Position numbers and translations under genes: made by a program
The notes under the pieces: generated by a model
Databases searched by the model: none
What the model saw: only the letters and a program-made list of their open reading frames with translations
Told to the model about the DNA's origin: nothing
Part shown: positions 1-16,555 of the stretch, piece after piece
Layout of the letters: each line of letters opens with the position of its first letter
Numbering within the stretch: the stretch's first letter is position 1
Assembly: GCA_029569475.1 (NCBI GenBank)
Contig: JAKQSZ010000053.1
Coordinates: forward strand, 1 to 16,555
DNA: 16,555 nucleotides
Origin: Candidatus Eiseniibacteriota bacterium
Lineage (GTDB): Bacteria; Eisenbacteria; RBG-16-71-46; CAIMUX01
Direction of reading: 5' to 3'

Positions 1-920
1 CGACCCTTGATCGACCAGACCGATACGGGGTCGTTCGCGGCTTCCCCGCGCGCGCGGGGATCGACCTCTGCTACGCACGCACGGGACCGCTTAGTCTTCG
101 GCTTCCCCGCGCGCGCGGGGATCGACCCCTCACCAGGGCCAACCTCAGCGATGCCTACCTGGCTTCCCCGCGCGCGCGGGGATCGACCCATCTGCGCCGC
201 CACCTTGATCTTTACCCTGGCGGCTTCCCCGCGCGCGCGGGGATCGACCTCCTCATGACCTGGGAGCACAAGGGATCGCCGCGGCTTCCCCGCGCGCGCG
301 GGGATCGACCCTTGACCACCCGGCCGATCCCGTCGCCGAATGTGGCTTCCCCGCGCGCGCGGGGATCGACCGTTCCTGTTGTGGCTGTCGCGCTATCAGA
401 GCGTGGCTTCCCCGCGCGCGCGGGGATCGACCCTGTCCCCAATCGATCAGCCTGCTTCCCTCCATGGCTTCCCCGCGCGCGCGGGGATCGACCTGGGACC
501 AGCCCGTTGTCACCGGCGCCCGCATTGGCTTCCCCGCGCGCGCGGGGATCGACCCCGGACGAGGCCGCGGTTCTGCAGAAGGTTATTGGCTTCCCCGCGC
601 GCGCGGGGATCGACCCGGGCACAAGACGGATAATCTCCGGATGCTCTGGGCTTCCCCGCGCGCGCGGGGATCGACCCCTATCAGGCCACGGACCGCGACT
701 TGCTCAAGAGGCTTCCCCGCGCGCGCGGGGATCGACCCAGAGCCGCCCATGCGGTCGCAAGAGTATCGGGGGCTTCCCCGCGCGCGCGGGGATCGACCTG
801 CTTCCCCTTCCCCTTCCCCATCCCCATCTCCGGCTTCCCCGCGCGCGCGGGGATCGACCTTGTGGGCAGACATGCGACTCTGTGAGATTCGGGGCTTCCC
901 CGCGCGCGCGGGGATCGACC
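1..920 (+). CRISPR. CRISPR array, type I-E-like repeats, 15 full repeats plus one cut by the window edge
   Basis: A 28-nt repeat starts at 39, 100, 161, 222, 283, 344, 405, 466, 527, 588, 649, 710, 771, 832 and 893. The last five bases of a further repeat occupy 1-5. The period is exactly 61 bp throughout, giving 15 spacers of 33 nt, all different, and the repeats look identical. Each repeat begins GGCTTCCCCG, contains the perfect palindrome CCCCGCGCGCGCGGGG and ends ATCGACC. This closely resembles the known I-E class (GTGTTCCCCGC...GGGGATAAACCG), so transcription is probably left to right with the leader off the left edge. If the repeat is counted as 29 nt with 32-nt spacers, as is usual for I-E, its last base varies (9 C, 5 T, 1 G, no A). 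No cas gene is in the window. The type call rests on the repeat alone. Confidence 0.97.
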
Positions 921-1156: not shown

Positions 1157-4100
1157 TCAGCGGCGAACGATCAGCTTGATGGTCGCGAGGTTTGCATCCT
1201 GGGCAAGCCGCGCCATGTACATCCCGGCCGCAACCTCCCGGCCGTGCTCGTCGCGAAGATCCCAAGCCAGCTGATGGTCACCGCGCTCCATCATGTCCGC
1301 CCAGAGAGTGGCGACGCGCCGCCCGCTGGCGTCATGAATCGTCAGGCTCGTCTCGCCGCGAACCGGGCTGTGGAAGCTCAGCAGCGCGGCATCGTGCGAG
1401 GGATTCGGCGTGACCCGCGCGAACCGGATCGAACCCGACCCAAGACCCTTGCCACTGCCGGGACCTCCGCCTTGCGTCGGGTCGGCGCCGTCCACGGAAC
1501 TTGAGCCCCCTCCGCCGGTGCGCAGGTCGGTTTCGGTCCCGCCATTGGAGGGGACCGAACACCACGGGGTGGTGGGGAAGAAGGGGGACTCACCGCGGAA
1601 ACGTACGCGCCAGTGCACTTCCGTGTCCGCGGGAAGGCCGGTCACGGTGGCGGTGGCGAGCACCGCGCTGCCGAGGCCCGGGACCGGCAGGCCGGTGTCG
1701 AGCCAGTCGGCCGGCTGGGGCGGCTCGGTCCACGACGTCGCCAGGGGCGAGACCTGAACCTCCAGGCGCACCTGGTCGCGACCCCGCGCGGTGCGTCCCA
1801 GCGAACTGACCATGAAACCGTCCGCCGCGTCGGAGGTGCCGCCCAGCGCGACCGGCGTCGTCTCGTCGGCGCGGAGCTGGCGCGGCCGGCGCAGCACGCC
1901 CGGCTCCTCGCCCGGCAGAAGGTCGCGGCCGCCGTAGTAGCAGACGACCCGGCCGAGGCTCGACGCGTAGTAGGGCTGGCCGGCGATGATGTCGGCGACT
2001 CCATCGCCCGTGATGTCGCCCGAAGTGTTCACGCTGAAGCCAAGATTGGTGAAGGGATCGGCGCCGTGGCGGGTCCAGGCAGGAGCGGGTGCGACCCCCG
2101 CGGCGCCTCCCAGGAAGAGCATCACGCTGCCCGCATCGTCCGCGCCGCTGTTGCTCCAGGGAGCGGCGCCCACGACGTCGCTGTAGCCGTCGTTGTTGAC
2201 GTCGCCGCCCCCCGCTAGGCCAAAGCCGAAACGATCAGCGAGCGCGTTGCCCAGCCGCTGAAAGTTCAGCAGGGGCGCGCGGTCGGCCTGTCCCAGATAG
2301 GCCACGACCAGGCCCCGGTCCGCGATGCCGTCGGCGTCGTAGTCGGGAGCGGCGTGGAGAAAGTCGCTGTAGCCGTCGCCGTTGATGTCTCCGCCGGCGG
2401 CCACGCGGGCGCCGAAGTGGGCGCTGGTCTGGTTGCCGCGCGTGCTCCAGGTCCCGTCCGTGCCGGAGGGGGAACCGAAGAACAGGTGAACGAACCCCTC
2501 GCCCGCGACGCCCTCGCCGGGGGCGCCGACCAGCACATCGGCGTATCCGTCGCCGTCCACGTCGCCGGCGCCCGCCACGCTGCGTCCGAACTCGTCAGAG
2601 TCGGTCGTGCCCAAGCCGGTCCAGATCGGCTCCGCGCCCAGGCCGTTCGGCCCGCCGGGATAGAGCAGGACCTTGCCGCCGCGCTCATCCTCTGTGCGGT
2701 GCCGGGGCGCGCCGACGAGCACATCGCCATAGCCATCGCCGTTGACGTCCCCGGCGCCCGCCACCGACATGCCGTACCAGGCGCCGAGGGCTTCGCCGGC
2801 GCCGGTCCACGAGGGAGAACTCTCCAGTCCATTGGCCGATCCCCGGTAAAGGAACGCCTGGCCGGCGTTGTCGAAGACGGGGTTTCCGAAGGGTTCTCCG
2901 ATCAGGAGGTCCTCGTAACCGTCATTATCGACGTCGCCGGCGCTGGCGAGCCCGTAGCCAAACTGACTCTGGGCCTCGGAGCCGGCGAGCGCCAGGTCGG
3001 CGGTCGCTCCGTAACCATCGGGGGAGCCGTAGTACACGTACACGACCCCTTCGTCCTCGTTGAAGGTGTCCCAGTAGGGGATGCCGACCGCCAGGTCGCT
3101 GTGGCCGTCGCCGTTCCAGTCGCCTTGCGCGAGCGTGTAGCCGAAGAGGGAGCTGACCTGGACGCCGGGGAGGGCGCGCGAGACCTGCTGGGCAGGGAGC
3201 GAGGGCCGGCCGAGCCAGAGCCGGACGATGCCCTCATCCGTCTGGCCGTTGTCATGCCGCGGCGCGCCCGCGATCACGTCACCGAAGCCGTCGCCGTTGA
3301 CGTCGCCGGCGGGGCGCACATCGGCGCCGAACTGCTCGGCTGCCTGCAGACCGGGCCGGTAGGCCAGAACGAGAAGCGTGTTGCCGGTCATGGAGCCGCC
3401 CAGCACGGTGATCGCGCCGGTGTTGCCCTCCGCTGACATTTCCGAGGCCAGCAGATCGGCGCAGCCGTCGCCGTTGACGTCGCCGGCTGTGTAGAGACCG
3501 TCGGCGAAGCCGCCGTGGTTGTTCGGGTAGACCCGGTCGGGCGCCGCCCCCGGACCGGCGGGGCCGCCATGAAAGACCAGGACCGCGCCATGCGCCGGGT
3601 TGTTGCTGCCCTTGTCGAAGGCGACGTCGCTGTAACCGTCGCCGTTGACGTCGCCGGCCATTCCCAGGCCCCAACCGCACCGTCCGCCGATCACCTCAGA
3701 CTCGTACGTCCAGTCGGGAACGAGAGACAATCCGCCGGGCGAACCGCGGAAGAGGTAGACGCGCCCTTCGCCGGTCTCGCCATCGGAGAGGTCGGGAGCG
3801 GCCACCAGGACGTCATCGAAACCATCGGCGTCGACATCGCCGGTGCCGCAGACCCGCATGCCGAAGTTGGCGCTCGCCGCGTTGCTCTCGAAGGTCCAGG
3901 CGTGGGTCGTGGAAATGCCGTCCGGCGTGCCGAGGAAGAGGTAGGCGCGCCCCTCGCTGGCCTGGCCGTCCGCATAACGCGGGGCCCCGACCAGGATGTC
4001 GTCGTAGCCATCCCCGTTGACGTCGCCGGCCGTGTCGATCGAGGTCCCGAATCCAATGTTGGAGATGTTGGGCTCCAGGATGGCCTGCGGGGTCTGGTTC

Positions 4101-4537
4101 GGTCCGGTGGGGGATCCGAGGTACACGTAGACGGCGCCCTCGGCGAACTCGCCGTTGGCGTAGACCGGGGTTCCCACCATCACGTCGTCGTAGCCGTCGC
4201 CGTTGAGATCGCCGGCGGTGGAGACCTTGCTCCCCAGCCAGTTCTGGGCTCCGCCGTTGACGGTCCAGACCGGCGTGGCAAAGTCCGGCGCGGGTCCGCC
4301 GAGATAGCACCAGACGGTGCCGTTGTCCTGCGATCCGTTCAGGAGCAGATCGCTGTAGCCGTCGCCGTTGACGTCCCCCGCGGTGCCCACGGAGAAGCCG
4401 ACCAGCGCCTGGGCGAGGTCGCCCTCGCGCACGGTCACAAAGGAGTCCGACAGCACGTCGGCCCCGGCCGGCCCGGCGAGTCCCGCCAGGACGACCAACA
4501 GGGCTCCGACGCCGCGAACCCGGAAGAGAGAACTCAT
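1157..4537 (-). CDS. Secreted FG-GAP repeat beta-propeller protein with C-terminal sorting domain
   Basis: This 1126-residue exported protein is probably surface-bound or extracellular. Residues 1-26 form a signal peptide (basic start, LLVVLAGLAG core, cleavage near AGA/D). Fourteen FG-GAP/integrin-alpha-type motifs of the form GD-x-NGDG-x-D follow at fairly even spacing from about residue 50 to 880. These are calcium-binding loops and would suit two seven-bladed propellers. A fibronectin-like segment comes next (motif HWRVRFRGESPFFPTTPW), then a Gly/Ser linker. The last ~90 residues are a FlgD-like/type IX-style sorting domain (VTPNPSHDAALLSF, DASGRRVATL, AAGMYMARL). Such proteins usually act in adhesion or ligand binding; no catalytic motif is seen. 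The frame stays open upstream to 4891, but that part is basic, low in hydrophobicity and overlaps the divergent permease. The start at 4537 has both the RBS and the signal peptide. Confidence 0.9.
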   Translation of the reverse strand: MSSLFRVRGVGALLVVLAGLAGPAGADVLSDSFVTVREGDLAQALVGFSVGTAGDVNGDGYSDLLLNGSQDNGTVWCYLGGPAPDFATPVWTVNGGAQNWLGSKVSTAGDLNGDGYDDVMVGTPVYANGEFAEGAVYVYLGSPTGPNQTPQAILEPNISNIGFGTSIDTAGDVNGDGYDDILVGAPRYADGQASEGRAYLFLGTPDGISTTHAWTFESNAASANFGMRVCGTGDVDADGFDDVLVAAPDLSDGETGEGRVYLFRGSPGGLSLVPDWTYESEVIGGRCGWGLGMAGDVNGDGYSDVAFDKGSNNPAHGAVLVFHGGPAGPGAAPDRVYPNNHGGFADGLYTAGDVNGDGCADLLASEMSAEGNTGAITVLGGSMTGNTLLVLAYRPGLQAAEQFGADVRPAGDVNGDGFGDVIAGAPRHDNGQTDEGIVRLWLGRPSLPAQQVSRALPGVQVSSLFGYTLAQGDWNGDGHSDLAVGIPYWDTFNEDEGVVYVYYGSPDGYGATADLALAGSEAQSQFGYGLASAGDVDNDGYEDLLIGEPFGNPVFDNAGQAFLYRGSANGLESSPSWTGAGEALGAWYGMSVAGAGDVNGDGYGDVLVGAPRHRTEDERGGKVLLYPGGPNGLGAEPIWTGLGTTDSDEFGRSVAGAGDVDGDGYADVLVGAPGEGVAGEGFVHLFFGSPSGTDGTWSTRGNQTSAHFGARVAAGGDINGDGYSDFLHAAPDYDADGIADRGLVVAYLGQADRAPLLNFQRLGNALADRFGFGLAGGGDVNNDGYSDVVGAAPWSNSGADDAGSVMLFLGGAAGVAPAPAWTRHGADPFTNLGFSVNTSGDITGDGVADIIAGQPYYASSLGRVVCYYGGRDLLPGEEPGVLRRPRQLRADETTPVALGGTSDAADGFMVSSLGRTARGRDQVRLEVQVSPLATSWTEPPQPADWLDTGLPVPGLGSAVLATATVTGLPADTEVHWRVRFRGESPFFPTTPWCSVPSNGGTETDLRTGGGGSSSVDGADPTQGGGPGSGKGLGSGSIRFARVTPNPSHDAALLSFHSPVRGETSLTIHDASGRRVATLWADMMERGDHQLAWDLRDEHGREVAAGMYMARLAQDANLATIKLIVRR

Positions 4538-4544
4538 CTGAAGA

Positions 4545-4549
4545 CCTCC
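4545..4549 (-). promoter_or_regulatory. RBS that sets the FG-GAP gene start
   Basis: GGAGG on the minus strand lies 7 nt before the ATG at 4537. It singles out this start over the in-frame ATG at 4567 and over the longer open frame reaching 4891. Confidence 0.75.
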
Positions 4550-4679
4550 ATGTTCGAAATCAGTCATAGGCGCGGCGCCCGGTTTGGGATCCCGCCGGGG
4601 AAGCGGGCGGTGGAGCGCCACCCTGCGGAAACACGAAGGCGGCGGCAAAACGCACGAGCTTTTTTGATGACGGTCGCAG

Positions 4680-4708
4680 TTGACGCTGGGGGAGCCAGCC
4701 GCTAGAGT
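4680..4708 (+). promoter_or_regulatory. Sigma-70-type promoter of the permease gene
   Basis: TTGACG (4680-4685) and TAGAGT (4703-4708) are separated by exactly 17 nt. They match the -35 and -10 consensus at 5/6 and 4/6 positions. Transcription would begin near 4715, which argues against a GTG start at 4712 and for the ATG at 4769. The 230-bp gap 4538-4768 is shared with the divergent FG-GAP gene; I found no clear minus-strand promoter in it. Confidence 0.55.
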
Positions 4709-4768
4709 GCCGTGGTTCGTGTCCGAGAAGAGACTACGAACTGCGGAGGGACGGACGCGCCCGCGACA

Positions 4769-6616
4769 ATGGACGCCGGCAAACCCACACATACCCACAC
4801 ACCGCGACCGCTGACCTGGCTTCTGGCCTGGGCGGTCGTCTTCTGTGACATCGGCACCAGCGTCTACTACGTCCCCGGAATCCTCTACCACCAGGTCGGG
4901 GACCTGGCCCCGCTCTTTGTCGGGCTGACCACGCTCGGCTTCTTCCTCCTGGCGCAGAAGTATGCCGAGGTCGCCTGGAGGAACCCCGAAGGGGGCGGTG
5001 TCGTCACGGTCGCCCGCAAGGCGTTCGGCTCATGGGTCGGGGCGATCGGCGGGATCCTCATCACGATCGACTACTTCCTTACCTCCTCGATCTCCTCGGT
5101 GAGCGGCTTCTCCTACCTGGCCACGGTCTTCCCCTTGATGGGCAACCACATCGAGGTCCTTTCCTGCGTGGGCATCGCTCTGCTCTGTGTCCTGAACATG
5201 ATCGGGATCCGGGAGTCGGCCACAGCCGCCCTGGCCATGGCGATGCTCTCCTTCGTGACCAGCCTGATCACCGGGATCGTCGGGCTCTTGCACATACAGC
5301 CGGACCAGGTGGCGGTGCTGATCGAGGGCGTGGGCCGCTTCGAGGCGCTGGGCCTGCGGACGATCCTCATCGGATTCGCCGGAAGCTGGCTGGCCTTTTC
5401 CGGGCTGGAGTCGATCAGCCAGCTCTCCCCGGCCCTGATGCCCCCCCTGAATCGCACGGCCCGCCGCGCCATGGTGACCGTGGTCATCACCATGGTCCTG
5501 ACCTCGCCGATCCTGACTGCCCTCTCGATCGCGGTCTTGTCGCCGGAGGTGAAGGCGGCGGGAGGGCACACCTACATCTCGGACCTGGCCGCCTCGACCG
5601 CCGGGACCTGGCTCAAGATCTCGGTCGTGACCTCGGCCTCCGCTCTCCTGCTCTTCGCCGCCAACACCGCCATGATCGGCGGCTACCACGTCTTCCTGGC
5701 CCTGTCGCGCGACCACTTCTTCCCGCGCATCCTCTCGCGGCGGAACAAGCACTTCTCCACACCGCACTGGGCGATCCTCATCACCACCCTGGTGCCGATC
5801 GGCACGATCCTGCTCACTCGGGCGCAGCTGAACCTGCTCGGCGAGATGTACAGCTTCGGCCTCCTGGGCGCCTTCACCTTCACGTCGATGGGACTGGACC
5901 GGATCCGTTGGAGCGAGAAGCAGCGCGGCCCGCTCTTCTGGCTGGGGATCCTCACCACCCTGATGGTGAGCGTCTCCTGGGGCGTCAACATCATCGAGAA
6001 GCCCTTCGCCACCGCCTACGGGGCGGCCCTGACGGTCTTCGGCGTGCTCATGGCCCTCTCGGTGCGCCGCAACTGGATCATCGCCGCGATCAACCGGATC
6101 CCGGTGATCAACCGCCGGGCCGCCCTGATCCGGCGCCGGGTGGAGGACGAGGTCGAGGAAGAGCAGGAGATCGTCACCATCGCCGGGGCCGTGGCCATGA
6201 AGCCGCTCTATCCCTCCTCCACCCTGGTGGCGGTGCTGGGAAACAACCCGAAGCTCATCGAGGAAGGGCTGCGCCGCTGCAAGGCGATGGGCGAGCACGC
6301 CATCTACCTGATGTCGGTGACGGAGTGGCCGGGGATGTTCTCGGGTGCCGAGAACAAGCCGTCTCCCGCGGTCGTCACGGCCCTGGCGGAGATGGGGCGC
6401 ATGGCCCACCGGCAGGGAGTCTTTCCGATCCCCATCTGGTCGGTCTCCGACAACGCGGCCCGGACCCTGGCCGATGCGTCGCGCATGCTCGGCTGCAACT
6501 GCGTCATGCTGGGGGTCAGCCAGCGCAGCGCGATCTATCACATGCTGCGCGGCAACGTCCTGCGCGGACTGGCGCGGCGGCTGCCCGAGGGGGCGACCAT
6601 CATCGCGGTGGGCTGA
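4769..6616 (+). CDS. APC-superfamily permease with C-terminal UspA-like domain
   Basis: This is a 615-residue inner-membrane secondary transporter. The first helix carries the APC-type motif FCDIGTSVYYVPG (about residues 25-37). Around a dozen hydrophobic segments run to about residue 430, with NPEGGGVV after the second helix and AANTAMIGGYHVFLALSRD later. The layout recalls amino-acid permeases and KUP/KimA-like potassium importers, so the substrate is open. After a charged linker (RRRVEDEVEEEQE), about 130 cytosolic residues look like a universal stress protein domain: VAVLGNNPKLIEEGLRRC near 487, then an LGVSQRS segment near 582. The nucleotide-binding signature is altered (G582-x2-Q585-x9-G595-N596 where G-x2-G-x9-G-S/T is usual). 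The ATG at 4769 is preferred because the promoter predicts a transcript starting near 4715. A GGAGGG lies 18 nt upstream, rather far. GTG at 4712 is the alternative start. Confidence 0.87.
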   Translation: MDAGKPTHTHTPRPLTWLLAWAVVFCDIGTSVYYVPGILYHQVGDLAPLFVGLTTLGFFLLAQKYAEVAWRNPEGGGVVTVARKAFGSWVGAIGGILITIDYFLTSSISSVSGFSYLATVFPLMGNHIEVLSCVGIALLCVLNMIGIRESATAALAMAMLSFVTSLITGIVGLLHIQPDQVAVLIEGVGRFEALGLRTILIGFAGSWLAFSGLESISQLSPALMPPLNRTARRAMVTVVITMVLTSPILTALSIAVLSPEVKAAGGHTYISDLAASTAGTWLKISVVTSASALLLFAANTAMIGGYHVFLALSRDHFFPRILSRRNKHFSTPHWAILITTLVPIGTILLTRAQLNLLGEMYSFGLLGAFTFTSMGLDRIRWSEKQRGPLFWLGILTTLMVSVSWGVNIIEKPFATAYGAALTVFGVLMALSVRRNWIIAAINRIPVINRRAALIRRRVEDEVEEEQEIVTIAGAVAMKPLYPSSTLVAVLGNNPKLIEEGLRRCKAMGEHAIYLMSVTEWPGMFSGAENKPSPAVVTALAEMGRMAHRQGVFPIPIWSVSDNAARTLADASRMLGCNCVMLGVSQRSAIYHMLRGNVLRGLARRLPEGATIIAVG

Positions 6617-6806
6617 CCGTTCGGGCACGCCGACACGATGGGGCTGGAGACCCGCGGACGACCTTCGCCCGGCCCGCCCGGCGCCCGGCTTCCGCCATGG
6701 GTTATCATGAAAGGTGCGCGTCTGACGCGCCCCGAGGCCGGATGGCGTCCCGAGCTGGTCGGGGCGCCCGGTCCTGTTCCGGGCACTTCCGTCCATGGAG
6801 GATCCG
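6617..6806 (+). other. Intergenic leader of the selenoprotein gene with hairpins
   Basis: No gene is seen here. A TATCAT at 6703-6708 could be a -10 element, but no fitting -35 box lies upstream. GCGCGT/ACGCGC forms a small hairpin at about 6716-6730. A perfect 6-bp stem with a 7-nt loop lies at 6766-6784. Neither hairpin is followed by a T run, so the first is at best a weak end to the permease transcript. The second sits 12 nt before the GGAGG RBS and could affect translation. Confidence 0.35.
6797..6801 (+). promoter_or_regulatory. RBS that sets the selenoprotein gene start
   Basis: GGAGG lies 5 nt before the ATG at 6807, which opens a signal peptide. This favours 6807 over the in-frame ATG at 6795, and over the internal ATG at 6954, which lacks any purine-rich RBS at usual spacing. 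Confidence 0.75.
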
Positions 6807-8843
6807 ATGCGGGGACTTCGCCAAGCGGTGGTTGCGCTCTTCTGGTTGACCCTGGCTGGCCCGGCGACGGCCGGCGTGCCGCCGGTCGTCATCGCCGAGG
6901 ATTACGGCGCGACGTGGTGACAGTATTGCCCTAATGCCCGGTGCGGGCTGGCAATGGTCCTGGAAGAGTTCGGAGGCAGGCTCATCGTCATCGAGCCGCA
7001 CGTGTCCTCCACCGACCCCATGAGCACGCCGGAGACGGAGGCGCGCGCGGACTGGTACGGCGTGAGCGGGATCCCGGACGTCCGTATCGGCGGCAAGGCC
7101 AAAGCTTCGGGCGCAACCACGTGCGAGCAGGCAGCCGGCGTCTACCGGCCCATCATCCAATCGCAATTGACCGAGAACAGCGGTCTGAGCCCCGTCGCCA
7201 TCACGGGGGACTTCTCGATCAGCGACGGAGTGGCCACGCTGGAAGCCACGTACCGGCTGGTGGACCCGGTCCCGCTGCCAGACATCCAGGCCACGCTCTT
7301 CCTCTACGAGGGCGATGTGACCTGGTGCTGCGGATACGGCGGAGAGGACACCTGGCAGGAAACGGTCCGGATGATCTGGAACGAGCCGGTCGTCTTCGAC
7401 GAGGTTGGCGACACTCGGACTGTGGCCAGGAGCATCCCGATCGGTTCCTGGAATCCGGACAATCTGCATGCCGTCGCCATCCTCCAGCAGACGGGCGGAT
7501 CCCTGCCGGTCGTGCAGGCCGCCCGGCTCCCCGCTGAGGTCGACTACTCGGTCACGATGCCGAGGTTCGTGGACTCGGCGCCCTCGGGCGAGGGCGTGTG
7601 CGTCTTCGACGGATCCTTCTGGAACCTGGCCGACGCCCAGGATCTCTTCACCCTCTCCACGACGCCGCCGGCCGGGTGGACGGTGGAGTTCCAGATCGAG
7701 GGCGATCCCCAGTGGTACACGAACACGGAGGTCAATCTCGCGGGCGGGGAGTCGCGGGGCGTCTCGGTCCGGGTCTCCACGGATGCCGTCCGCCGGGCCG
7801 ACACCGCTCTCTTCACGGTGCGGTCGAGCCATTCAGGACGGCTGCAGGAGATACGCCTCCGCATCTTCAACGGGGCGCCGGCCGTGCTCTTCGTGGATGA
7901 CGACAACGGCTCCAGCTATGGCGGCACGCCGTACAGCCAGCCCTTCCACCAGGGGTTCGGGGAAGCAGACTACCTCTACGACACCTGGGACGCCGACGCG
8001 GATCACGGCGGCGGAACCCCGGGATTGAGCGATCTGCTGGGCTACGACCTGGTGATCTGGGCTACCGCCTATGTGTACACCCGGCCGGTGACCGACACCG
8101 ACATGTTCGTCCTGAAGAACTACCTCGATTCCGGGGGCCGCCTCTATCTCGCCGGAACCGAGATCCTCACGCAGGCCGTGCCCGGGGACTTCTTTGCCAA
8201 CTACCTGGGCGTGGAAAGCTGGACCAACAACACCGGCGCCGACTACGTGACCGGGATCCCCAACGATCCCCTCAGCGACGGCCTGCTCCTCGACATGACC
8301 TGGCCGGTGCCGCAGGCCAACAAGGTGGACCGGGTCGACCCGACGACGGAGGGGCGGACGATCCTCGTCTCCGACGGGGGCAACTCCTCCGCCGTCCGCT
8401 ACGAGAGAGGCGCCTTCCGGACCGTCTTCTCGACGCTGGAACACCTCTTCATGGACAGCGACCCCGACCCGAACAACTCGGCCGCCTTCCTCGCCCGGAT
8501 CTGCACGTGGTTGCTCGGCTCCGACCCGACCGCAATCGGAGACCCACCGCAAGCGATCGCCTCGGGAATCCTTCGCGTGAGTCCGAGCCCCTTTGGAGTC
8601 CAGACCGAGATCTCCTTCGGGTTGCCGGGAAGCGCGGCGCGGGCGCCGGCCGAGGTGCTGGTTCTTGATGCCGCCGGGCGGCGGGTCCGGAGCCTTCATA
8701 GCGGCGTGGCTGAAGCCGGCCTGCAGCGGGTCGTCTGGGATGGGAAAGACGACCAGGGGGCGCCGGTGGTCTCCGGCATCTACTTCGTCCGGCTCAAGGG
8801 GAAGGACTGCGCCGGAGTGGCCAAGGTGGTCGCCATCCGGTGA
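6807..8843 (+). CDS. Exported thioredoxin-fold selenoprotein (UxxC) with amidotransferase-like and sorting domains
   Basis: The protein has 678 residues if the in-frame TGA at 6918-6920 is read as selenocysteine (U38). Residues 1-23 are a signal peptide ending ATAG. The mature N-terminus is an Omp28/thioredoxin-like domain: VVIAEDYGATW-U38-QYCPNARC, where U38-Q-Y-C41 replaces the usual CxxC, with C46 nearby and a likely cis-proline at P90 in GVSGIPDVRIGG. A middle domain starting near residue 360 (VLFVDDDNG, LVIWATAYVYTRP, LKNYLDSGGRLYLAGTEI) resembles class I glutamine-amidotransferase/ThuA-like folds; no catalytic Cys is evident at the expected nucleophile turn. Residues ~586-678 are a FlgD-like/type IX-style sorting domain (SPSPFGVQTEISF, DAAGRRVRSL, VVSGIYFVRLKG). 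Function is inferred: extracytoplasmic thiol-disulfide or peroxide chemistry. It overlaps the next gene by 4 nt. The alternative is a TGC-to-TGA nonsense error, but the SECIS-like hairpin and the exact active-site position argue against it. Confidence 0.85.
6918..6956 (+). promoter_or_regulatory. UGA selenocysteine codon and bacterial SECIS-like hairpin
   Basis: The TGA occupies 6918-6920. Downstream, 6924-6930 pairs with 6950-6956 (seven pairs, the outermost U-G). Next is an internal loop of CUAAU on the 5' side against a single U on the 3' side. An upper stem of GCCC (6936-6939) with GGGC (6945-6948) carries the loop GGUGC (6940-6944). The apical GU falls 21-22 nt after the UGA. In E. coli fdhF it falls 20-21 nt after, and bacterial SECIS models require a G near the start of the apical loop some 16-37 nt from the UGA. 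SelB with Sec-tRNA would bind here. No sel genes lie in the window. Confidence 0.8.
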
Positions 8844-9598
8844 GCGAGCCGACGGGCGAGGATTCGGAAGAACCGGGGCCGGGCGTGCAGGAGCGGTCCC
8901 CCGCTCCAGAAACGGTCGGCCTCGGGCTCGGCCGGCGCATCCACGTCATCGGCAACAGCTGCTCCGGCAAGAGCACCATGGCGCGTTTTCTCGGCGAGCA
9001 GCTCGAGATTCCCGTGGTCGAGCTGGATGCGCTCAACTGGCTGCCCGGCTGGGTGGGCCTCAACGCCACCAATCCAGACGAACTCGAGCGCTTGATGCGG
9101 GAGGCGACAAAAGGGGAAGAGTGGGTCGTGGCAGGTTCCTACTCCGCGTTCTGCCGCCGAGTGTTCTGGGACCGCCTGGAAACCATGGTCTGGCTGGACC
9201 TGCCGATGATGCAGCTGCTGGCTCGCGTGCTGCGCCGTTCCTGGCGGCGCTGGCGCTCGAAGGAAATCCTGTGGGGCACGAACGAAGAGAGTTTCTGGCG
9301 CCAGCTCATGGTCTGGCGCAAGGAAGACTCTCTGGTGTGGTGGATCGTCACGCAGCACTCGCGAAAGCGCCGTGAGATGGTCGCCATGCAAAGCGACCCT
9401 CGTTGGGCCCACCTCCGGTTTGTCCGGCTGGGATCCTCCGGGGAAGTACGGCGGTTCGTGGCGGAAATCGAGGCAAGGCAACGACGCGTGCCGCACCGCG
9501 AAGATGGAGCGGGTGACTCTTCCAGGTCGATCGTGCGTCGCGCGGCTGCCGTGCCGGGAGAAGACGGAATGGAAGGGAACCGCAAAGCACATGAGTGA
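8840..9598 (+). CDS. P-loop kinase-like protein, FlaR / topology-modulation type
   Basis: This is a cytosolic P-loop NTPase of 252 residues in the adenylate-kinase-like group often labelled DNA topology modulation protein FlaR; the true substrate is unknown. Walker A is G38-N-S-C-S-G-K44-S-T46 after a short strand (IHVIG). ELDALNWLPGW follows, then EEWVVAGSYSA, and a VWLDLP segment that can serve as Walker B. Arg-rich stretches (RVLRRSWRRWRS, SRKRR) correspond to the lid region of the family. Residues 1-31 and those beyond about 215 are low-complexity and not conserved in type. The GTG start overlaps the selenoprotein stop (GTGA), with AAGGTGG 10 nt upstream, so the two are probably translationally coupled. 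A later start within the first 30 codons is possible. Confidence 0.8.
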   Translation: MSEPTGEDSEEPGPGVQERSPAPETVGLGLGRRIHVIGNSCSGKSTMARFLGEQLEIPVVELDALNWLPGWVGLNATNPDELERLMREATKGEEWVVAGSYSAFCRRVFWDRLETMVWLDLPMMQLLARVLRRSWRRWRSKEILWGTNEESFWRQLMVWRKEDSLVWWIVTQHSRKRREMVAMQSDPRWAHLRFVRLGSSGEVRRFVAEIEARQRRVPHREDGAGDSSRSIVRRAAAVPGEDGMEGNRKAHE

Positions 9599-10998: not shown

Positions 10999-11069
10999 GA
11001 TCCCTCCGTTGCTTCCCCCCTGCCCGCAGGAGACTCGCAGGGGTGTGATGGGCGGATCCTGGTTGCTCG

Positions 11070-11212
11070 CGGACCTGACTCGCGGACCCTACTCGCGGAC
11101 ATCACTCCCGGACCCGACTCTCGGACCCGACTCCCGGACTCGACTCTCCGACCCGACTCCCGGACCCGATTCTCCAACCTTACTCCAGAGCCTTGCCCTC
11201 GGACCGTACTCC
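11070..11212. repeat. Degenerate 13-bp tandem repeat, about 11 units
   Basis: Eleven consecutive 13-bp units fill 11070-11212 with consensus CGGACCCGACTCY. The central copies (11109-11173) are closest to one another; those at 11174-11199 are the most diverged. The block occupies most of the gap between ccmF and DoxX and ends at the ccmF stop codon (TAG at 11214-11212). No phase or reading frame links the units to a protein. Confidence 0.8.
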
Positions 11213-16164: not shown

Positions 16165-16421
16165 TCACTTGACCAGGATCATCCGCGTCGCGCTCGCGTG
16201 CGCAGGCGTGCGCAGATTGGTGAAGTAGATACCGGCCGGTAGCCGGGCGCCGTGGTCGTCACGGCCATTCCACACGACCTCGTGATCTCCCGCAATCAGG
16301 TCGGCCTCGACGAGCTTGCGCACCCGCCGCCCGCCGATGTCGAGGATGTCGAGCCGGACCGGGCCAGCCGACGACAGGGTGAAGCTGATGGTCGTCTCGC
16401 CGCTGAAGGGGTTTGTGGGCG
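16165..16421 (-). pseudogene. C-terminal FlgD-like sorting domain of a gene broken by an IS element
   Basis: About 85 codons remain, ending at TGA 16165. They show the same sorting-domain pattern as the other two exported proteins here: PTNPFSGETTISFTL, LDILDIGGRRVRKLVEADLIAGDHEVVWNGRDDHG, and PAGIYFTNLR. Upstream of about 16421 the frame runs into the end of an IS3-family element, and no signal peptide or N-terminal domain remains. The 5' part of the gene is probably on the far side of the insertion, outside the window. What the intact protein did cannot be told from this domain, which only serves export and anchoring. Confidence 0.8.
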
Positions 16422-16555
16422 TGCCCCGCTTTCGTGGACACCTCAGTTGGCGCGATACTGCGCTGGGAGGGAGCCATGGCAAAGCGGAAGCGACGGAAGT
16501 TCACGGACGAATTCAAGGCTGACGCGGTCAAGTTGGTCCGCGCGGGTGGCAGGAG
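16422..16555 (+). mobile_element. Left end of an IS3-family insertion sequence
   Basis: Homology of the FlgD-like fragment stops at about 16421. Sequence beginning TGCCCCGCTTTCGTGGACAC follows, which fits an IS3-type terminal repeat opening with TG. The OrfA gene starts 54 nt further in. The right end, second repeat and target duplication are beyond the window, so the exact boundary is an estimate. Confidence 0.65.
16476..16555 (+). CDS. IS3-family transposase OrfA, partial (5' end only)
   Basis: The first 26 codons are visible: MAKRKRRKFTDEFKADAVKL followed by VRAGGR. This is the standard opening of IS3-family OrfA, whose N-terminal helix-turn-helix binds the element's ends. GGAGG lies 5 nt before the ATG. 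The gene runs off the right edge. In intact elements OrfA and OrfB are joined by programmed -1 frameshifting; that part is not in view. Confidence 0.85.
   Translation, partial: MAKRKRRKFTDEFKADAVKLVRAGGR

What the first reader, a model, noticed from the sequence alone, without database searches (positions are those of the whole stretch)
6807..8843. New selenoprotein candidate: in-frame UGA replaces the first cysteine of a thioredoxin-like CxxC site
From a well-placed ATG with GGAGG and a signal peptide, a single TGA (6918-6920) interrupts an otherwise open 679-codon frame. It falls exactly at the resolving point of the family motif: TW-U-QYCP where TWCxYCP is expected. A random nonsense mutation landing on the catalytic cysteine, followed by 640 intact codons, is unlikely. 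I know of no described selenoprotein with this Omp28-like domain plus amidotransferase-like domain plus sorting domain. Standard gene calling would begin at 6954 and miss the active site and the export signal.
Basis: partly seen in the sequence, partly recalled or inferred. Interest (0 to 1): 0.96.

Follow-up and report, generated by a model that had tools for sequence, protein, structure and literature searches.

The report
Surface selenoprotein with UGA-coded active site
In this gene, probably from an uncultured Eisenbacteria bacterium, a UGA "stop" codon sits exactly where related proteins carry the first cysteine of a thioredoxin-like active site, so the gene likely makes an exported selenium-containing (selenocysteine) redox protein, and most of its relatives in the databases are probably cut short because gene finders stop at the same codon.

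Summary
One TGA (6918-6920) interrupts an otherwise open frame (678 residues) with a Shine-Dalgarno site and, by eye, a signal peptide. It replaces the first Cys of TWCQYCP.

Evidence for selenocysteine (Sec) is comparative:
- Of 91 homologue clusters, 6 reach the site, all with Cys; 85 begin downstream of it, 60 within about 22 residues.
- In Cloacimonadota, all 17 relatives with an inner stop have TGA at this Cys. SelB is in 14 of 15 of their genomes, against 8 of 63 genomes with TGA-less relatives (p = 4e-9, kinship not corrected).
- A hairpin after the TGA uses one base-pair register in the window and in 10 of 18 Cloacimonadota TGA genes, against 0 of 11 Cys genes and 2 of 338 other TGAs of the window. 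The register was chosen after seeing it.

Omp28-related selenoproteins are already known (GOS_C / NF045500). This protein scores 39-42 bits on that model (cut-off 200) and adds an amidotransferase-like fold and a FlgD-type tail: a divergent, apparently undescribed subfamily.

Not tested: Sec machinery of the window's own genome (not held); DNA of the 85 truncated homologues. Hairpin stability alone is not significant.

The parts
6797..6802 (+). Shine-Dalgarno GGAGGA, 4 nt before ATG
   Evidence: sequence
6807..8843 (+). full reading frame of the predicted selenoprotein (678 residues plus stop)
6807..6872 (+). signal peptide MRGLRQAVVALFWLTLAGPATA
   Evidence: by eye; no signal-peptide program was run; stretches 1-7 and 10-18 have pLDDT under 50
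6870..7541 (+). thioredoxin-like plus beta-sandwich module, residues 22-245, HBP35-like fold
6918..6920 (+). in-frame TGA, predicted Sec codon (residue 38)
6927..6929 (+). TGC, second residue of the UxxC site (Cys41)
6924..6956 (+). predicted SECIS-type hairpin: apical stem 6936-6940/6944-6948, loop GUG 6941-6943, lower stem 6924-6930/6950-6956
6954..8843 (+). truncated ORF that standard gene calling gives (629 aa)
   Evidence: P0002
7863..8525 (+). class I amidotransferase-like (ThuA-like) fold, residues 353-573
8601..8801 (+). FlgD Ig-like C-terminal domain, residues 599-665
   Evidence: PF13860 43.6 bits, cut-off 27
8841..8843 (+). TGA acting as the real stop; overlaps the GTG start (8840) of the next gene

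Best explanation
The TGA at 6918-6920 is predicted to be read as selenocysteine by the SelB route, which would give an exported thioredoxin-like oxidoreductase with a Sec-Gln-Tyr-Cys active site. Shown: the TGA sits at the first Cys of the CxxC motif, in a frame otherwise open from a Shine-Dalgarno-led ATG to 8841. Shown: relatives whose sequence was read at that place have Cys or an in-frame TGA. Predicted: a hairpin just after the UGA recruits SelB and Sec-tRNA. Predicted from fold: residues 22-245 form an HBP35-like thioredoxin module, residues 353-573 an amidotransferase-like module probably without catalysis, and the FlgD-type tail anchors the protein at the cell surface. Inferred: Sec38 attacks disulfides or similar substrates outside the cell and Cys41 resolves the intermediate.
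For: (1) Of 91 homologue clusters, 6 contain the site and all 6 have Cys. The other 85 start downstream of residue 38, 60 of them at about residues 39-60 (56 counted by script, 4 placed by eye), so gene callers appear to meet a stop at the same place. (2) P0002, which differs from the window at three residues, also starts at M50; this argues against a read error, though its upstream DNA was not seen. (3) Cloacimonadota: 17 of 17 listed rows with an inner stop have TGA, none TAA or TAG, and all 17, plus L062, have it at this Cys behind a signal-peptide-like N-terminus. (4) SelB over cut-off in 14 of 15 TGA genomes versus 8 of 63 others with hits, p = 4e-9. tRNA-Sec over the gathering score in 13 of 16 TGA genomes (all 56 bits or more) versus 1 of 12 chosen others (47.5 bits, gathering 47). 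(5) Same hairpin register in the window and 10 of 18 Cloacimonadota TGA genes, 0 of 11 Cys genes, 2 of 338 other TGAs of the window (register chosen after seeing the folds); pairs kept in 86% of cells versus 28-45% when slid. (6) A model built only from Cloacimonadota genes has its best window hit at 6921-6965. (7) In the tree, the six Cys members of the Eisenbacteria set need six changes among truncated ones, five forced by starred branches.
Against: No genome is held for the window, so its selA/B/C/D are untested. The DNA upstream of the 85 truncated homologues was not seen. The hairpin is not unusually stable (z -0.16 to -0.71), and 167 of 338 other TGAs of this GC-rich window also fit the published bSECIS rules. 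Hairpin energies of TGA and Cys genes do not differ significantly (p = 0.12). The structure model adds little over sequence alone (12.0 versus 10.8 bits, and the sequence-only E-value is the better one). Eight of 18 Cloacimonadota TGA genes do not keep the full register. One TGA genome, G168, shows neither SelB nor tRNA-Sec over cut-off, and G166 and G212 no tRNA-Sec. Outside this set, one weak Omp28-like match in a Bacteroidota genome holds a TAA (G097, E 2e-4). The SelB test does not correct for shared ancestry.
Confidence: 0.91

Rival explanations
1. The TGA is an ordinary stop from a recent nonsense mutation or sequencing error, and the gene is a pseudogene or makes only the part from 6954.
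For: The ORF from 6954 is what an ORF finder reports; own-genome Sec machinery is untested.
Against: The near-identical P0002 and 60 of 85 truncated homologue clusters begin at about the same place; 640 codons downstream stay open; no clear Shine-Dalgarno is seen by eye before 6954; the hit is exactly on the catalytic Cys.
Confidence: 0.06
2. UGA is read through as a common amino acid, by reassigned code or leaky suppression, without selenium.
For: Read-through alone would also restore the frame.
Against: The same gene ends on a TGA that overlaps the next gene's start, so the code is not reassigned throughout; the 6 full-length homologues have Cys, not Trp, at the site; TGA relatives track SelB and tRNA-Sec in Cloacimonadota.
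Confidence: 0.02
3. The Sec reading is right, but the protein is a plain member of the known Omp28-related selenoprotein family (GOS_C / NF045500), and the extra domains are incidental.
For: The best selenoprotein-family match is NF045500, residues 27-238, UxxC in a Trx-like fold (GOS_C described).
Against: 38.7-42.2 bits against a curated cut-off of 200, and profile positions past 264 of 377 unmatched; a set of 91 clusters of its own, found with a profile that spans the amidotransferase-like middle.
Confidence: 0.2

Closest known systems
Omp28-related selenoprotein, NCBIfam NF045500 (hypothetical protein GOS_C)
   Same: Trx-like fold, UxxC motif, Omp28-like module
   Different: The window protein matches only profile positions 40-264 of 377 at 39-42 bits (cut-off 200) and adds amidotransferase-like and FlgD-type domains
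HBP35 of Porphyromonas gingivalis (PDB 5y1a)
   Different: Cys instead of Sec; no amidotransferase-like match reported in that chain; hemin binding of the window protein not tested
Cloacimonadota Omp28-like proteins with TGA (L062, L090, L095, L101, L104-L117)
   Same: TGA at the same Cys, signal-peptide-like start; 10 of 18 with the hairpin in the same register
   Different: Separate group in the tree; L062, the one read along its length, shows by eye a PKD-like and repeat region before a FlgD-like tail instead of the amidotransferase-like fold

Membership tests
Bacterial selenoprotein gene | in-frame UGA at a redox position aligned with Cys in homologues | tested here: met
Bacterial selenoprotein gene | bSECIS rules of PMC13188914: loop 3-9 nt, stem 4-16 bp, G in the first two loop positions, spacing 16-37 nt, MFE -7.5 or lower | tested here: met
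   loop GUG, 5 bp, spacing 20, -13.6 kcal/mol; but 167 of 338 other TGAs of the window also fit, so weak
Bacterial selenoprotein gene | selA, selB, selC, selD in the same genome | not testable with these tools
   no genome held; no tRNA in the window
Bacterial selenoprotein gene | Sec shown in the protein | not testable with these tools
   needs mass spectrometry
Omp28-related selenoprotein NF045500 | score over the curated cut-off of 200 bits | tested here: not met
   38.7 and 42.2 bits
Omp28-related selenoprotein NF045500 | UxxC in a Trx-like fold | tested here: met
   (fold predicted)
Pfam Omp28 PF11551 | match over the gathering score | tested here: not met
   no match up to E 1 for the window module; homologues P0028 (36.1 bits) and P0092 (66.5) pass 34.9, P0023 (25.4) does not
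HBP35-like proteins | thioredoxin plus beta-sandwich fold | tested here: met
HBP35-like proteins | thioredoxin activity | not testable with these tools
   bench assay
Type IX secretion cargo | TIGR04183 sorting domain over cut-off | tested here: not met
   15.6 bits, cut-off 23; FlgD_ig PF13860 is met, and homologue P0023 passes TIGR04183 at 32 bits
Class I glutamine amidotransferase | fold | tested here: met
Class I glutamine amidotransferase | catalytic Cys-His-Glu | not tested
   no Cys seen by eye in the GGRLYLAG stretch (residues 443-450)

The most novel reading that the evidence does not exclude
Eisenbacteria carry a large, multi-copy family of surface-anchored Sec thioredoxins in which Sec is the ancestral state and Cys has replaced it on separate lines. 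About 85 database clusters are headless versions of selenoproteins. This would be an expanded selenium-based redox system working outside the cell.
Probability: 0.6. Interest if true: 0.72.

Novelty: new variant of a known kind. Interest (0 to 1): 0.58.

Why it matters
It would add a multi-domain, exported selenoprotein subfamily to the prokaryotic list and extend selenium use to a phylum for which three paper searches in an open-licence library found nothing. It also shows a large annotation gap: truncated starts across a whole family point to missed Sec codons, a signal that can be used without knowing SECIS rules. The scattered Cys members make Sec-to-Cys exchange directly testable within one family.

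Tried and rejected
Own-genome search for Sec machinery: no genome held. Rfam scan of the window at E up to 5: three weak matches, none near 6918. Viral contigs: no relative by profile. Phylum of G001 (KSB1 and Calditrichota records, 82 genomes): the middle fold occurs in other proteins (34 of 82 genomes), and the 17 listed Omp28_seleno rows there show no inner stop (11 of 82 genomes), so the TGA form is not general. Hairpin stability as evidence: rejected, because shuffles and other TGAs do as well. A Mann-Whitney test of hairpin energy, TGA versus Cys genes, was not significant (p = 0.12). RNAalifold on the 19 TGA stretches kept only 3 pairs, -0.58 kcal/mol. The covariance model gained little from structure, and one Cys gene, L086, scored 27.6 bits, read as a recent Sec-to-Cys change. 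Most Foldseek matches after 5y1a are long chains with low TM-scores and were not used. The MAFFT mapping misplaced five rows (P0007, P0011, P0015, P0069, P0091), which I placed by eye. The 11 Cys genes used as a control (9 Cloacimonadota, 2 Bacteroidales) are those of the fetched loci that fit a motif filter, not all Cys relatives. A second paper on selenoprotein prediction (PMC12013277) was seen as passages and not used. After the filing check I recounted, read the rest of the review table, and ran one more paper search; confidence was lowered by 0.01 because the exact TWCQYCPN matches are partly by construction.

Full report
OBSERVATION. The ATG at 6807 follows GGAGGA (6797-6802). The frame is open to a TGA at 8841-8843 except for one TGA at 6918-6920. 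Residues 36-42 read TW-U-QYCP. An ORF finder reports only 6954-8843. No clear Shine-Dalgarno is seen by eye before 6954. Third-position GC is 0.84 before the TGA and 0.88 after it; the upstream stretch 6618-6806 is also GC-rich (0.78), so this is only mildly informative.

THE SITE IN RELATIVES. The loci were fetched with search words that included TWCQYCPN, so the exact TWCQYCPN seen in many of them is partly by construction. Five further rows at E 1e-3 or lower without that word (L011, L015, L018, L019, L033) also have Cys at position 38; one weak row (L015, E 0.84) has Ser, and some short rows are chance matches. A first protein search gave 10 homologues and a profile search without the FlgD tail gave 87, together 91 clusters. 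The six with an organism name are from Candidatus Eisenbacteria / Eiseniibacteriota. Six clusters reach the site and all have Cys: WCQYCP, WCTYCP twice, WCGDCP, WCSYCP, SCGPCA. The other 85 start after residue 38. By script 56 start at 39-60; four more were placed by eye at about 39-48; the remaining 25 start later. Some late ones may be cut by contig ends. P0002 is near-identical to the window, with three substitutions, and also starts at M50. I did not see the DNA of these homologues; that a TGA stops them is inferred.

THE SAME CODON WHERE DNA COULD BE READ. In a Cloacimonadales genome the NF045500 model found a match with one TGA (L062; the same call gave one weak match with a TAA in a Bacteroidota genome, G097). 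In 124 genomes of that phylum, 78 had matches to residues 1-521 of the window protein at E 1e-6 or lower. Seventeen listed rows in 15 genomes had one inner stop, always TGA. All 17, and L062, have it at the first Cys: TWUGYCP, TTUGYCP, SWUPYCP and the like, behind a signal-peptide-like start. SelB (TIGR00475 over its cut-off) is in 14 of these 15 genomes and in 8 of the 63 with TGA-less matches, Fisher p = 4e-9, not corrected for kinship. tRNA-Sec is over the gathering score in 13 of 16 TGA genomes (G091 included; all 56 bits or more) and in 1 of 12 TGA-less ones that I chose (G140, 47.5 bits against 47). G168 lacks both; G166 and G212 have SelB but no strong tRNA-Sec. These are largely metagenome bins and may be incomplete.

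THE HAIRPIN. After the UGA the window can fold a two-part hairpin with apical loop GUG. It fits the bSECIS rules of a 2026 review (PMC13188914; abstract, passages and parts 1-2 of 3 of section 7 seen). But so do 167 of 338 other TGAs of this window, and shuffles fold as well. The sharper test is register, which I chose after seeing the folds. Pairs 16-28 to 20-24 after the UGA, with G in the first two loop positions, are all present in the window and in 10 of 18 Cloacimonadota TGA genes, against 0 of 11 Cys genes (9 Cloacimonadota, 2 Bacteroidales), 2 of 338 other TGAs of the window and 2 of 609 codons of the same gene. Over 19 TGA sequences 86.3% of cells pair, against 28-45% with slid partners, with five C-G to G-C changes in one pair, in related sequences. 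RNAalifold alone keeps only three pairs. A model built without the window has its best window hit at 6921-6965 (12.0 bits, E 0.11; next 6.2), but a sequence-only model finds the place too (10.8 bits, E 0.0098).

EVOLUTION. A quick tree of 65 rows, with 29 of the 85 truncated clusters chosen by hand, puts 35 Eisenbacteria rows together (support 90), with five Cys rows scattered among them (P0072 and P0087 share an unresolved fork) and P0092 outside. The six Cys rows need six changes, five forced by starred branches. Cloacimonadota TGA genes form another group (support 100) with one Cys gene, L086, inside it. L086 keeps a strong hairpin match (27.6 bits) and its genome G156 has SelB, as expected if it recently changed from Sec to Cys. 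The truncated rows are assumed to be Sec and the root is not inferred, so ancestral Sec is the likely but unproven reading.

WHAT IS KNOWN. Omp28-related selenoproteins are not new: NCBIfam NF045500 is the entry given for GOS_C with UxxC in the review table, and GOS_C was described in 2008 with 74 Sec and 312 Cys sequences and a Trx-like fold (PMC2398784, passages). The window protein scores 38.7-42.2 bits against a 200-bit cut-off. Searches pairing selenoprotein or selenocysteine with Eisenbacteria, selenoprotein with Eiseniibacteriota, selenocysteine with Cloacimonad, and 'Omp28-related' with selenoprotein found no paper; Omp28 with selenocysteine found one, on Helicobacter; selenoprotein with type IX secretion found one, on rabbit diet (listings only, open-licence library only).

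VERDICT. The Sec reading is very likely right. The kind is known, this subfamily and architecture appear undescribed, and the main gap is the missing genome.

Noticed in passing
window 39-920: CRISPR array: 15 identical copies of a 28-nt palindromic repeat GGCTTCCCCGCGCGCGCGGGGATCGACC at a 61-nt period, with the look of a type I-E repeat (recalled); no cas gene was looked for.
   Followed up: partly
L086:1600-1647: Cys homologue in a SelB-positive Cloacimonadota genome (G156) keeps a strong SECIS-like hairpin (27.6 bits) and lies inside the TGA group, as if Sec had recently been replaced by Cys.
   Followed up: partly
P0045/P0071/P0079; P0047/P0048/P0053; P0041/P0068; P0027/P0030; P0012/P0040; P0032/P0056: Several homologues share one longest-contig length (51179, 77460, 82493, 42960, 13697, 61852), suggesting multiple copies on one contig; in one set a Cys copy (P0048) goes with truncated copies.
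   Followed up: no
G168:C382 (L109): A TGA-containing Omp28-like gene in a genome bin with neither SelB nor tRNA-Sec over cut-off: incomplete bin or mis-binned contig.
   Followed up: no
window 8840-9598: Next gene (AAA_18-like, 25.7 bits, under its cut-off) starts on a GTG that overlaps the stop of the selenoprotein frame, suggesting translational coupling.
   Followed up: no
window 1157-4891 (-), 16165-16482 (-): Two more FlgD_ig-tailed products: a protein with 13 FG-GAP stretches and a short C-terminal piece.
   Followed up: no
window 11066-11186: Tandem repeat of period 13/26 (unit CTCCCGGACCCGA) between the DoxX and CcmF genes.
   Followed up: no
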